Source: a virus. From it: DNA of 27,330 nt. The DNA is taken from IMG/VR virus record IMGVR_UViG_3300021087_000063, positions 1 through 27,330 of that record, one strand, 5' to 3'. A program made the position numbers and the translations under genes. The notes beneath the pieces were generated by a model. It was given only the letters and a program-made list of their open reading frames with translations, ran no database searches and was not told the DNA's origin. The stretch's first letter is position 1. The number at the start of each line of letters is the position of its first letter. Below, in pieces: positions 1,852 to 4,384 of this stretch.

Positions 1852-2304
1852 TTACCAGATGTTGGCGCCTGCCCAACAATCTTGAAAGTTTGGATATTGA
1901 GAAGTTGGCATTCCAAGATTCGATAATTCACCATCCAAAACATTACCAACTAGTTTATAGTTTTTAGTCAAAATATCACCACGTTTAAAAGTTTCATTAT
2001 CATTCTTTACTACAAAGCCCCAAACGTGTTTTTTCTTATGAGCTGTTTTATATAGTTTAGAATTTTCTTGATCTATAATAGAAGAACATCCAGATTTTGC
2101 AGATGCTTCTATACGAAAATATTTTGAACCAGAGAACACTCCAAAACCATGTCCGAAATCTCGGCTCTCAATACAATACTCTTTTTTATCTGTTACACAA
2201 GATAACCAACTATGATAGTTTTTATTGATTGAGTTGTTGAGTGCAACAACTTCCCATTTTAAGTTCATTTTTTTGATATCTTTTTTTAATTCTTTGATGT
2301 TCAT
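1852..2304 (-). CDS. Hypothetical protein, 150 aa, first gene of early operon 1
   Basis: The frame is open to 2346, but I choose the internal ATG at 2304 (MNIKELKKDIKKMNLKW). AAGGAC sits about 6 bases before it, and the promoter at 2353-2381 would start RNA near 2346, leaving no leader for the longer form. The protein has a lysine-rich N-terminal helix and then a probable beta-rich body with several cysteines (LSCVTDKKEYCIESRDFGHG, SGCSS, QDCW). The GHGFGVFSGSKYFRIEA segment suggests a compact sheet. I recognise no family. As the first gene behind a strong promoter it should be well expressed early. Confidence 0.7.
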   Translation of the reverse strand: MNIKELKKDIKKMNLKWEVVALNNSINKNYHSWLSCVTDKKEYCIESRDFGHGFGVFSGSKYFRIEASAKSGCSSIIDQENSKLYKTAHKKKHVWGFVVKNDNETFKRGDILTKNYKLVGNVLDGELSNLGMPTSQYPNFQDCWAGANIW

Positions 2305-2352
2305 TTGAAAGTCCTTATTTGATTTATCTTTATTTCTCATTTTCATAATACT

Positions 2353-2381
2353 ATTATAGCAGCCTTTTCTATATAAGTCAA
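2353..2381 (-). promoter_or_regulatory. Strong early promoter of operon 1 (sigma70-type, extended -10)
   Basis: Read on the minus strand, TTGACT (2381-2376) and TATAAT (2358-2353) are separated by exactly 17 bp, and TGC precedes the -10, giving an extended -10 element. The expected RNA start is about 2346. This is a textbook host-RNA-polymerase promoter and fits immediate-early transcription of the ten genes running to 21. Confidence 0.88.
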
Positions 2382-2451
2382 ATTTATTTGCATATTTAAG
2401 TCATTGTTTTATAACGACTTATGGACAAACGACCGAGCCCTTTGTTTATGG
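2371..2451. repeat. Duplicated early-promoter module, copy A
   Basis: This 81-bp block aligns without gaps to 3772-3852, with 61 of 81 bases identical. It contains the -35 hexamer and, 44 bp upstream of it, a 19-bp element that is identical in both copies (ACAAACGACCGAGCCCTTT at 2425-2443, plus-strand reading). The middle is less conserved. The fixed spacing implies a functional unit, such as an activator or DNA-bending site tied to the promoter. Confidence 0.85.
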
Positions 2452-2518
2452 TAGTTTACAGAGTTATTGATAACGCTAACCATTGTTTTATAAGGGCTTA
2501 CAGTCATATTGATAACGC
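2402..2518. repeat. Two interleaved direct-repeat pairs
   Basis: CATTGTTTTATAA occurs at 2402-2414 and 2481-2493. TATTGATAACGC occurs at 2465-2476 and 2507-2518. The second copy of the latter overlaps the end of the 2504-2785 gene. The order A-B-A-B suggests a small tandem duplication spanning the gene end and the promoter-upstream region. Confidence 0.7.
2436..2498. other. Nested inverted repeats between the two early operons
   Basis: Three stems nest. The outer is AGCCCTT (2436-2442) with AAGGGCT (2492-2498). The middle is ATGGTAG (2448-2454) with CTAACCAT (2476-2483, one bulge). The inner is GTTAT (2463-2467) with ATAAC (2470-2474). On the minus strand this follows the stop of the 2504-2785 gene by five bases, so it may terminate or protect the operon 2 transcript. 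The outer left arm lies inside the conserved 19-bp element. Confidence 0.55.
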
Positions 2519-2785
2519 CATCTTTGCAAGTCCAAAGAGTGCAATCGCGATAACTATGCAATTTAATGCGATTAAATTAACACTATTGCGTAAATACGCG
2601 TTGATGATATGGAGCGAAGAACCAACTATCTGAATTAAAAATATAGTTAAGATAGAAACGGACTCTCCGTACCACGCCATCAATACATAGATTGCAATAA
2701 AACAGATTGAACCAATAGATTCACAGAACAGCCTAAATCGGTGATTCATCCAATCGTCTTTTAACCAGTTTAAAAATTTCTTCAT
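2504..2785 (-). CDS. Integral membrane protein, about three spans, 93 aa
   Basis: A basic, tryptophan-containing N-terminus (MKKFLNWLKDDWMNHRFRLF) is followed by three hydrophobic segments at about residues 22-39, 43-62 and 70-92. The first segment contains two cysteines. The positively charged start suggests a cytoplasmic N-terminus. The start is supported by GAGGT about 9 bases upstream within the end of the preceding gene, from which it is separated by two bases. It is the last gene of operon 2. Phage membrane proteins of this size can be holin-like or superinfection-exclusion factors, but its place in an early operon argues against a holin. Function unknown. Confidence 0.72.
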   Translation of the reverse strand: MKKFLNWLKDDWMNHRFRLFCESIGSICFIAIYVLMAWYGESVSILTIFLIQIVGSSLHIINAYLRNSVNLIALNCIVIAIALFGLAKMALSI

Positions 2786-2787
2786 TA

Positions 2788-3051
2788 TTAACGTACCTCA
2801 TATTGCTTAATATTGCGTGGTAAAAACATTTGCGTAATCCAATAAGTTGCTCTCATTTTCTTAGATACTTTTGGATTGTCTTTTTTAACTGCGAACTTTG
2901 CAAATGATTTTCGTTGCTTTTCTGTTACCGAAAAAATGACCGTATCTTTGTCAATATCATAACCATTGACATAATGATCTTCCAGTTCAAATGCGTCTGC
3001 GATTCTATCAAATTGCGTTCGTGGTATCTCTAATTTATATACAATATCCAT
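2788..3051 (-). CDS. Hypothetical basic protein, 87 aa
   Basis: The protein starts MDIVYKLEIPRTQFDRIADA, continues through an acidic segment (FELEDHYVNGYDIDKD) and becomes strongly basic in the second half (TEKQRKSFAKFAVKKDNPKVSKKMR). That split could suit nucleic-acid binding or interaction with a negatively charged partner, but this is inference. A strong GGAGG ribosome site precedes the ATG. There is no membrane span and no recognised family. It lies eleven bases past the stop of the small membrane gene at 3062-3193, in early operon 2. Confidence 0.7.
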   Translation of the reverse strand: MDIVYKLEIPRTQFDRIADAFELEDHYVNGYDIDKDTVIFSVTEKQRKSFAKFAVKKDNPKVSKKMRATYWITQMFLPRNIKQYEVR

Positions 3052-3061
3052 AGTGCCTCCG

Positions 3062-3193
3062 TTAGTTAGTATAAGTTGCGTATTGAGTCATTTCAACAAA
3101 CTGCTCAAAAAAGATAACTTGAGCTATTGAGTAAAAAAGTGGTGCTAAATAAATCATACAACCAATTATAAAAATGTAAAATAAATACTTCAT
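3062..3193 (-). CDS. Small single-span membrane protein (paralogue of 163-291)
   Basis: The 43-residue product starts MKYLFYIFIIGCMIYLAPLF. It has one hydrophobic segment (about residues 4-29) followed by QVIFFEQFVEMTQ and a short tail. It shares its start, the proline-interrupted hydrophobic core and the Q-hydrophobic-FFE motif with the 42-residue protein at 163-291. Its ATG overlaps the stop of the 3193-3459 gene (TAATG), so translational coupling is expected. The pair suggests an old duplication spread over the two early operons. A membrane-localised role is likely; the function is unknown. Confidence 0.68.
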   Translation of the reverse strand: MKYLFYIFIIGCMIYLAPLFYSIAQVIFFEQFVEMTQYATYTN

Positions 3194-3459
3194 TATATAG
3201 ATGCGCCTTTCACAAAGTTGTCAATTTCAGATTGCTCAACCATCATTATTATATCAGATAGATTAGCGACCCAATTATTAATATGTTTAGAAGTGGTGCG
3301 AGAATATTTCTCTTTTGTTACACAAACTCTTGTTTGCTTTTTGCCTAAATGCATTGCTTCAGTAATAATACAAACAGGCGTTTCGTATGAGAAAAATATT
3401 TGCGTTCCATCTTCTAATTGTAATTCTGTTTGGTTTGCACCAATTAATTTTAATTTCAT
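3193..3459 (-). CDS. Conserved-looking phage hypothetical protein, 88 aa
   Basis: The N-terminal half (MKLKLIGANQTELQLEDGTQ, then IFFSYETPV at residues 21-29) has the look of a small beta-barrel or OB-like sheet. The second half contains YSRTTSKHINNWV at residues 52-64. I associate the GTxIFFSYETPV...YSRTTSKHIxxW pattern with a small uncharacterised protein found in many marine T4-like phages; this is recall, not a search. The start is supported by CGGAG 8 bases upstream. No enzymatic motif is visible. It sits in the middle of early operon 2. Confidence 0.72.
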   Translation of the reverse strand: MKLKLIGANQTELQLEDGTQIFFSYETPVCIITEAMHLGKKQTRVCVTKEKYSRTTSKHINNWVANLSDIIMMVEQSEIDNFVKGASI

Positions 3460-3471
3460 ATTATACTCCGA

Positions 3472-3552
3472 TTATAAAAACATCATTAAAAAGGCCATTA
3501 AACAAATCAACAACAATACTAATATATCTGTTAGAATTTCTTTAATAGTCAT
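3472..3552 (-). CDS. Possible 26-aa membrane micro-protein
   Basis: This is a very short frame starting MTIKEILTDILVLLLICLMA and continuing hydrophobic to its end, so it would be a single membrane helix and little else. The ATG lies one base after the stop of the 3554-3709 gene (TAATATG), the same arrangement as at 413/415, which supports coupled translation. No separate Shine-Dalgarno sequence is visible. It fills an otherwise unexplained gap in a tightly packed operon. Its small size means it could still be chance. Confidence 0.5.
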   Translation of the reverse strand: MTIKEILTDILVLLLICLMAFLMMFL

Positions 3553-3553
3553 A

Positions 3554-3709
3554 TTATTCACATTGACCCCAACGTGCGTTTTTAGAGCCCTTTGCTTTTC
3601 GTGTTGGACACTTAACAAAGCCTCCATTTTTCTTAACTTTTTTTAAGTCTTTTTCTGTTACCATATCTTTGGTAATTACTGCTCCCCAATTTTGTGCTTT
3701 AATTTCCAT
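3554..3709 (-). CDS. Small basic protein, 51 aa, first gene of early operon 2
   Basis: The product begins MEIKAQNWGAVITKDMVTEK and is very lysine-rich in the middle (DLKKVKKNGGFVKCPTRKAK), with two cysteines at positions 34 and 50. The charge would suit nucleic-acid binding, but there are too few cysteines for a classical zinc site. GAGGA lies about 7 bases before the ATG. The leader from the promoter at 3754-3782 would be about 35-40 bases. No family recognised. As the first gene of an early operon it is a candidate host-takeover or regulatory protein, by position only. Confidence 0.68.
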   Translation of the reverse strand: MEIKAQNWGAVITKDMVTEKDLKKVKKNGGFVKCPTRKAKGSKNARWGQCE

Positions 3710-3753
3710 TTATTAATCCTCAATTTTTATTATTAATCATTAAATACAATACT

Positions 3754-3782
3754 AGTATAGCAAAAGCAATCAAATAAGTCAA
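3754..3782 (-). promoter_or_regulatory. Strong early promoter of operon 2 (sigma70-type, extended -10)
   Basis: On the minus strand TTGACT (3782-3777), a 17-bp spacer and TATACT (3759-3754) form a near-consensus promoter with TGC before the -10. The expected RNA start is about 3747. Spacing, -35 and extended -10 match the promoter at 2353-2381. Confidence 0.87.
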
Positions 3783-3852
3783 ATTTATTTTGGCTTGTAA
3801 GTCATTGATTTATTGGCAGTTACAAACAAACGACCGAGCCCTTTAGAAATGG
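3772..3852. repeat. Duplicated early-promoter module, copy B
   Basis: This is the partner of 2371-2451: 81 bp, no gaps, 61 identities, with the 19-bp element ACAAACGACCGAGCCCTTT at 3826-3844 identical and at the same distance from the -35. Conservation of spacing while the region between drifted indicates selection on the element plus promoter. Confidence 0.85.
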
Positions 3853-3907
3853 GGACTTACAGCGTTGAAAATCTGTAAGTCCTTGTAAACAAAGGAGTTG
3901 CCATTTC
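3846..3907. other. Stacked inverted repeats upstream of the divergent promoters
   Basis: GGACTTACAG (3853-3862) and CTGTAAGTCC (3873-3882) form a perfect 10-bp stem with a 10-base loop. Flanking it directly on the left, GAAATGG (3846-3852) pairs with CCATTTC (3901-3907), leaving an 18-base bulge. No T-tract follows on either strand. It lies between the early promoter and the first late promoter and could be a protein-binding site, an insulator or part of a replication origin. Confidence 0.6.
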
Positions 3908-3916
3908 CACAGATAT

Positions 3917-3924
3917 TATAAATA
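3917..3924 (+). promoter_or_regulatory. T4-type late promoter box
   Basis: TATAAATA exactly matches the T4 late promoter -10 box recognised through gp55 with the gp33/gp45 clamp. It is the first late box on the plus strand. With a start about 6 bases past the box, the mRNA leader for the gene at 3938 would be only about 8 bases, and no Shine-Dalgarno sequence is visible. Confidence 0.72.
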
Positions 3925-3937
3925 TCACAAAAACACC

Positions 3938-4384
3938 ATGCTTTTATCAAAAGAAATCAAAAAATGGCGATCAAAACCAACGTATAAAGAGCCGTCTAAA
4001 ATTCATTGGTTTGTATGGTTGCTTGAGAATCCAAAAAGTCCCCTTAGTTTAACCGGTGCAATAGACCTCTATAACCATGATATTATCCATATCTTATTAG
4101 AGCGTGGTATGGAAGTCAAAGATGAAGCTTCTGTAATTGGATTTACTATGGGCAATAGTGAAACTACCAGTTCTTGGGTCCGATGGTTATTTGAGTTTTG
4201 TGCGAGATATCTATATCCAGAGGGGTATCGTTTTAGTGAAGATGATCTGGTGGAATTTGAAATGGGATATGCATATGGATATACCAGACCCAAGCGTAAT
4301 ATTCATTTGACCAAGTTTGATATCCAGAAAGATGTTGAAGAAATACGAAAGGAATGGGATATAGAACTTATAAATATTAGATAG
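3938..4384 (+). CDS. Coq4-like helical protein with HDxxHx11E motif
   Basis: This 148-residue protein is helical and tryptophan-rich. Residues 47-63 read HDIIH, eleven residues, then E (H47, D48, H51, E63), exactly the HDxxHx11E metal-site pattern of the ubiquinone-biosynthesis protein Coq4. Downstream, a YLYPEGYRFSEDDL segment, a FEMGYAYGY helix and an EEIRKEWDIEL tail also resemble the general Coq4 layout, but overall similarity cannot be judged by eye. Phages do not make quinone, so the role might be binding a lipid or metal, or something structural. I recall related hypothetical proteins in marine T4-like phages. The start is the only plausible ATG; no ribosome site precedes it. It is expressed from the late box at 3917. 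Confidence 0.62.
   Translation: MLLSKEIKKWRSKPTYKEPSKIHWFVWLLENPKSPLSLTGAIDLYNHDIIHILLERGMEVKDEASVIGFTMGNSETTSSWVRWLFEFCARYLYPEGYRFSEDDLVEFEMGYAYGYTRPKRNIHLTKFDIQKDVEEIRKEWDIELINIR
4369..4376 (+). promoter_or_regulatory. T4-type late promoter box
   Basis: TATAAATA overlaps the last codons of the 3938-4384 gene and lies 17 bases before the ATG of the phosphatase gene. The AGAGGAG ribosome site lies between. It should add late transcripts for 4394-6229. Confidence 0.68.

What the first reader, a model, noticed from the sequence alone, without database searches (positions are those of the whole stretch)
2371..3852. Duplicated early-promoter module with an invariant 19-bp upstream element
Blocks 2371-2451 and 3772-3852 align without gaps (61 of 81 bases). 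In both, a near-consensus extended -10 promoter has ACAAACGACCGAGCCCTTT exactly 44 bp upstream of its -35. Host-type promoters this strong should not need an activator. An invariant, GC-rich element at fixed distance in an AT-rich genome suggests binding of a phage or host regulator, or a DNA signal such as a packaging or replication mark.
Basis: partly seen in the sequence, partly recalled or inferred. Interest (0 to 1): 0.62.

Follow-up and report, generated by a model that had tools for sequence, protein, structure and literature searches.

The report
Palindromic operator arrays on phage promoters
The repeated 19-letter sequence is one piece of a larger pattern: uncultivated ocean viruses related to phage T4 carry rows of a 31-letter mirror-image sequence just upstream of their strong promoters, which looks like a docking site for an unknown control protein.

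Summary
The interpretation needs correcting. The 19-mer starts right after a 31-bp imperfect palindrome, so 44 bp is a 12-bp gap plus the palindrome. Each module is a row of three sites centred near -63, -100 and -142, the middle one degenerate and overlapping the 19-mer. The palindrome has strict dyad spacing (15 pairs vs about 2.4 expected), occurs 69 times in 21 contigs of uncultivated marine T4-like phages (0 in each of five simulations) and is at background in HTVC008M, Mosig and Melnitz. Of 18 non-redundant clusters, 14 have an outward sigma70 promoter within 60 bp (control 2.4%) and 7 a late TATAAATA within 40 bp (control 2.3%). A second search pattern gave promoters at 6 of 8 low-GC groups. 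The arms do not covary, so a protein-bound operator array is likelier than a hairpin. Best reading: an upstream operator or enhancer array for a dimeric regulator, laid out like the FIS sites of rrnB P1. The protein, and whether it activates or represses, are unknown.

The parts
2353..2381 (-). early-type sigma70 promoter 1, TTGACT-17-TATAAT with extended -10 (TGn)
2394..2424 (.). palindromic site A1 (proximal, centre about -63), score 25.5, 12 bp from the -35
2431..2461 (.). degenerate middle site A2 (centre about -100), score 5.3, below threshold
   Evidence: score and offset; sequence
2473..2503 (.). palindromic site A3 (distal, centre about -142), score 21.5
1852..2346 (-). gene downstream of promoter 1 (no Pfam or PHROG match); real start probably ATG at 2304, because the inferred transcription start is about 2346
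   Evidence: start site inferred
3754..3782 (-). early-type sigma70 promoter 2, TTGACT-17-TATACT with extended -10
3795..3825 (.). palindromic site B1 (proximal, centre about -63), score 23.3
3826..3844 (.). second copy of the 19-mer
3832..3862 (.). degenerate middle site B2 (centre about -100), score 7.1, below threshold
3873..3903 (.). palindromic site B3 (centre about -141 to promoter 2; upstream of the late promoter), score 33.0
3917..3924 (+). T4-type late promoter TATAAATA, 13 bp beyond site B3
3554..3709 (-). first ORF downstream of promoter 2 (51 aa, no family)
3938..4384 (+). 148-aa gene downstream of the late promoter; conserved in 12 of the 34 contigs compared, no Pfam match in its G002 homologue

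Best explanation
Each module is an operator or enhancer array fused to a strong early-type sigma70 promoter: 31-bp imperfect palindromes, probably each bound by a dimer of one DNA-binding protein, with the nearest site about 12-13 bp upstream of the -35 (centre about -63). Shown: the sites, their dyad spacing, repetition, intergenic placing and promoter association. Inferred: that a protein dimer binds, and that from this position it touches RNA polymerase (alpha-CTD side, class I-like) and tunes early transcription, more likely upward than downward. At divergent junctions such as 3795-3903 the same array also flanks a T4-type late promoter and could act on both. The 19-mer is a clade-specific, strongly conserved linker plus variant half-site inside the array, possibly a second contact point. 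Whether phage or host encodes the protein is unknown.
For: Half-sites GTAASYC/GRSTTAC peak sharply at a 13-bp gap: 15 pairs vs 2.4 on average in shuffles, other gaps 0-4. 69 sites (score 17 or more) in 21 T4-like contigs of 411,744 bases vs 0 in each of five first-order simulations and 2 in the reversed sequence. 31 of 35 sites in the 18 non-redundant clusters lie outside ORFs of 70 aa or more, where such ORFs leave 11.6% of the sequence. 14 of 18 clusters have an outward sigma70 promoter within 60 bp vs 2.4% of 655 draws from 131 other intergenic gaps (Fisher p about 1e-17); 7 of 18 have an outward TATAAATA within 40 bp vs 2.3%. 9 of 10 promoters of at least 11/12, 17-bp spacer, outside ORFs longer than 240 nt, carry a cluster (three of the nine are orthologues of one promoter). 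Contigs found with a different core pattern: 7 of 13 new groups have such a promoter, 6 of 8 below 42% GC, vs 4.9% of random positions. Over all 31 groups the gaps are mainly 12-13 (7) and 23 (3), about one turn apart. Arms show no excess complementarity over shuffled arms in 67 sites (517 vs 558.5 +- 9.9). The centres resemble the FIS sites of rrnB P1 at -71, -102 and -143 (PMC2885671, passage seen).
Against: No binding protein was found. The protein family shared most widely with non-T4 site-bearing contigs is a peptidase M15. Gaps are not uniform: 3, 6, 16, 25, 29, 36-38 and 51 also occur, and 10 of 31 groups have no promoter. The core promoters are near-consensus and may need no activator. 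The contigs were chosen because they carry sites or a neighbouring gene. Of the 5 new groups from contigs of 47% GC or more only 1 has a promoter. Minus-strand RNA of both arrays folds better than shuffles (z -4.1). No expression or binding data exist.
Confidence: 0.62

Rival explanations
1. Repressor array: the same dimeric protein shuts down early promoters later in infection, through looping or cooperative binding of sites about 37 bp apart, or blocks the neighbouring late promoter early.
For: Promoters are near-consensus and would be on by default, and arrays lie between early and late promoters at divergent junctions.
Against: The proximal site ends 12-13 bp upstream of the -35 and does not overlap the core promoter; site spacings vary (25, 29, 36-39, 47-49, 77-79, 99, 104).
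Confidence: 0.2
2. PeSL-type cassette: stem-loops that end upstream transcription, joined to an early promoter, which spread by homologous shuffling.
For: Module duplicated around a five-gene block; in relative G004 the 93-aa gene next to the array is absent. Arrays often follow a stop codon. The RNA of the arrays folds well.
Against: Arms do not covary. No terminator-like site was found at either array. Many arrays are divergent, with nothing to terminate. In L015 and L030 a hairpin with T runs lies next to the palindrome, so the two are separate parts.
Confidence: 0.1
3. Replication origin iterons: the arrays bind an initiator and the early promoter primes replication, as a counterpart of T4 oriE (recalled, near gene 5).
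For: Repeated palindromes beside a strong promoter in the baseplate gene region.
Against: Clusters occur at several other loci, such as around peptidase and CobS genes and after a GAPDH gene, often with only one or two sites.
Confidence: 0.05
4. The palindrome is a target or footprint of a mobile element or recombinase and is not regulatory.
For: A related motif is dispersed in a Kapaibacterium genome and sits at the tmRNA 3' end in two planctomycete MAGs.
Against: Strong promoter association with recurring gaps; only 5 stretches in the whole genome-contig collection vs 31 in viral contigs for the same exact pattern.
Confidence: 0.05

Closest known systems
E. coli rrnB P1 with FIS sites I-III
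   Same: Strong sigma70 core promoter with three upstream dimer sites; FIS at -71, -102, -143 (PMC2885671), here about -63, -100, -142.
   Different: The site is 31 bp with fixed outer half-sites and does not match the 15-bp FIS consensus (recalled). The binding protein is unknown. The proximal site is about 8 bp closer.
PeSL promoter-terminator cassettes of T4-like phages (Arbiol 2010, Comeau 2014; titles seen in reference lists only)
   Same: Early promoter plus an upstream palindromic element, duplicated and flanking exchangeable small genes.
   Different: No terminator signature, no arm covariation, present at divergent junctions.
T4 early promoters (UP/-35/TGn/-10)
   Same: -35, TGn and -10 elements near consensus (PMC2988021, passages seen).
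   Different: T4 early promoters are described there with UP elements; operator arrays are not mentioned in the passages seen.
MotA box of T4 middle promoters
   Same: A phage-specific element at a sigma70 promoter.
   Different: The MotA box is centred at -30, replaces the -35 and is bound by a monomer (PMC2988021, passages seen); here the -35 is intact and the element lies upstream.

Membership tests
PeSL promoter-terminator cassette | early-type promoter | tested here: met
PeSL promoter-terminator cassette | stem-loop terminator (GC-rich stem plus T run) upstream of the promoter | tested here: not met
   none called at the arrays; arms do not covary
PeSL promoter-terminator cassette | module copies flank exchanged genes | tested here: inconclusive
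   duplicated module; 93-aa gene absent beside the G004 array; no systematic recombination test
FIS/rrn P1-type upstream activation | array of dimer sites upstream of a strong core promoter at about -60 to -145 | tested here: met
   both window arrays, by arithmetic; transcription start inferred
FIS/rrn P1-type upstream activation | the bound protein is FIS and raises transcription | not testable with these tools
   needs binding and transcription assays
MotA-dependent middle promoter | MotA box replaces the -35 | tested here: not met
   TTGACT -35 intact in both promoters
Known RNA element | match to an Rfam family | tested here: not met
   0 matches in the window at gathering thresholds

The most novel reading that the evidence does not exclude
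A regulator not yet described in phages, encoded by the phage or borrowed from the host, binds these arrays and sets the switch from early to late transcription in marine T4-like phages. That would fill the gap left by their lack of recognisable middle promoters, with one array serving an early and a late promoter at divergent junctions.
Probability: 0.25. Interest if true: 0.72.

Novelty: new variant of a known kind. Interest (0 to 1): 0.52.

Why it matters
Published work on the closest isolates reports that middle- and late-promoter detection failed in pelagimyophages (PMC7029224, passages seen) and that Melnitz lacked identifiable middle promoters, perhaps because they are too divergent (PMC9004378, passages seen). 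This motif gives a concrete, scorable control element for a related uncultivated marine group. It makes the question of how these phages time transcription testable: pull down the protein on a 31-bp site and map starts in infected cells.

Tried and rejected
Element as the unit: rejected; where ACAAWCGACC follows the array grammar it is directly attached to a palindrome, and the other exact hits are unrelated. Two of six hits of the 16-mer in viral contigs (L004, L009) showed no resemblance beyond the element and were dropped as chance.

Hairpin or RNA element: arms tested against shuffled arms, no excess. Caveat: I turned each site to one orientation by its core, which lowers core complementarity; the outer arms alone (positions 0-11) also show no excess. 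Rfam gave nothing. The folds do show strong structure (z -4.1), which palindromes produce anyway.

Regulator gene: clusters of proteins shared by site-bearing contigs and absent from three isolates gave a peptidase M15, a zinc ribbon, a WYL_2 fold and unknowns; none is a convincing regulator.

Isolates: no convincing site in 50,697 phage records by blastn with a consensus 31-mer (best E 0.2); the two window arrays gave nothing convincing either. The E-values of so short a query are weak evidence.

Host regulator: one exact-pattern scan of genome contigs gave 5 stretches in Planctomycetota, Gemmatimonadetes and Kapaibacterium, whose settings do not suggest a named regulator.

Literature: the searches for the motif core TTTGTTTACAA and for palindromes at T4-like early promoters returned no description of it. 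The two PeSL papers are not held.

Full report
What is there. The window is a 27,330-base virus record with T4-type baseplate genes to the right and small leftward genes to the left. The closest named phages by the baseplate protein are the Pelagibacter phages Mosig and HTVC008M and Methylophilales phage Melnitz, at about 40% identity. The reported duplication is real: 61 of 81 ungapped matches, against 45-47 for the best match in three simulations, and two exact copies of the 19-mer. Both promoters read leftward and have a TGn-extended -10.

From the 19-mer to the palindrome. Relatives found by the 148-aa neighbour gene (22 loci) showed that the region is built of imperfect palindromes. A spacing test in 12 records, with half-sites GTAASYC and GRSTTAC and one mismatch allowed, gave 15 pairs at a 13-bp gap against a mean of 2.4 in shuffles; other gaps gave 0-4. 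The half-sites had been read by eye from the same relatives, so the test is of the spacing, not of the half-sites. The resulting weight matrix is 31 bp long. In the window it finds 2394-2424, 2473-2503, 3795-3825 and 3873-3903. Between each pair lies a weaker site that starts 6 bp into the 19-mer (2431-2461 and 3832-3862, scores 5.3 and 7.1). So the 19-mer is the short linker after the proximal site plus the altered left arm of the middle site. The 44-bp spacing is 12 bp to the palindrome plus its 31 bp.

Conservation of the 19-mer. In six aligned arrays from window, G002, G004 and G006 the block AAAGGG[CT]TCGGTCG[AT]TTGT is one of the most conserved stretches. It is therefore probably functional, but it is restricted to this group. 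In the 59.8-kb relative G002 the pattern TCGACCGARCCCTTT (two mismatches) occurs only at the two orthologous arrays, and 7 of 23 records have any match; two of these 7, G007 and G015, have only two-mismatch matches at other places. Of 17 exact hits of ACAAWCGACC in the 38 records, 13 begin at the base after a palindrome; 4 do not (G002, its near-copy G003, G010, L019). A second linker, CGACATAGTA, follows sites in G005, G020 and L076 with 1-3 bp overlap; most of its other hits have no site before them.

How widespread. An exact core pattern gave 31 stretches in viral contigs and 5 in genome contigs; a second core pattern gave 29 in viral contigs, of which 23 were new loci (L149-L171). In 21 T4-like contigs (411,744 bases) there are 69 sites at score 17 or more, 0 in five first-order simulations and 2 in the reversed sequence. 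HTVC008M has 1, Mosig 0, Melnitz 0, as expected by chance. I grouped the 34 clusters into 18 non-redundant ones by sequence similarity of the flanks. These contigs were selected for carrying sites or the neighbour gene, so frequency among all marine phages is not measured.

Association with promoters. 14 of 18 clusters have an outward promoter (TTG..., at least 10 of 12) within 60 bp, against 2.4% of 655 draws from 131 other intergenic gaps; 7 of 18 have an outward TATAAATA within 40 bp, against 2.3%. The four without a promoter are G006:1285, G007:19132, G021:16898 and G005:23. Contigs fetched with the second pattern are a partial hold-out: 20 of 27 clusters, or 7 of 13 new groups, have such a promoter; 6 of 8 groups below 42% GC, against 4.9% at random positions. 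Over all 31 groups 21 have one; the gaps are 12-13 (7), 23 (3), 29 (2), 36 (2) and single cases of 3, 6, 16, 25, 37, 38 and 51. A preferred position exists but not a single fixed one. Per genome the number is small: the strict pattern gave, counting a place once, 2 to 4 places in each of 7 records of 35-195 kb, some of them one-mismatch matches likely to be chance, above all in the AT-rich G052 where the control gave as many.

Sense of the sites. The arms are not more complementary within a site than between sites (517 vs 558.5 +- 9.9, 2000 shuffles, 67 sites). That argues for protein half-sites, not for a hairpin. Against this, the leftward RNA of both arrays folds better than its shuffles (z -4.1). 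The terminator scan finds nothing there, and divergent arrays have no upstream transcript to end.

Mechanism. If transcription starts 7 nt after the -10 (2346 and 3747, inferred), the sites are centred at -63, -100 and -142, and at -63, -100 and -141. FIS sites at rrnB P1 are centred at -71, -102 and -143 (PMC2885671, passage). A strong core promoter with three upstream dimer sites is thus a known working design. My commitment: an upstream operator array for a dimeric protein (0.62), activation more likely than repression. The protein was not found. Proteins shared among site-bearing contigs and missing in the three isolates gave a peptidase M15, a zinc ribbon, a WYL_2 fold and unknowns.

Place among known things. 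It resembles PeSL cassettes in layout but lacks the terminator; it resembles rrn P1 in geometry but not in motif. Papers on the nearest isolates state that middle and late promoter prediction failed in pelagimyophages (PMC7029224) and that Melnitz lacks identifiable middle promoters (PMC9004378). I found no published description of the motif in the searches; the library holds open-licence papers only.

Noticed in passing
L048:9373-10407 and L049:1699-3198 (record G002, relative of the window): A phage glyceraldehyde-3-phosphate dehydrogenase (Pfam Gp_dh_N and Gp_dh_C) and an aldehyde dehydrogenase (Aldedh, E 4e-165), each with a palindromic site at or just after its stop codon.
   Followed up: partly
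L048:18789-19118, L048:6777-8702 and L048:16458-16970: Further metabolic genes in the same relative: an iron-sulphur assembly protein, a B12-type ribonucleotide reductase and a 5-FTHF cyclo-ligase.
   Followed up: no
L110:1169 and 3759, L111:621, 3370 and 6257 (Kapaibacterium Ch6 chromosome): A related palindrome directly after a run of C, repeated between genes that look like secreted surface proteins.
   Followed up: no
L107:398-428 and L109:4931-4961 (planctomycete MAGs): A related palindrome sits directly against what reads as the 3' end of a tmRNA gene (gene named by eye).
   Followed up: no
L082:3971-9685: A 50% GC viral contig with eight related palindromes (score 8 or more), several with a shared flank (GGGGC-like before, CGATT-AAAAAA after), dispersed between genes.
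   Followed up: no
L015 near 2120 and 2415; L030 near 2530 and 2890: A symmetric hairpin AACGACCCGGTAGGTCGTT with T runs lies next to the palindromes and shares the CGACC letters of the 19-mer; the 19-mer may be related to it.
   Followed up: partly
window 1-27330: Another pair of 81-mers in the window matches at 68 of 81 positions; its place was not looked up.
   Followed up: no
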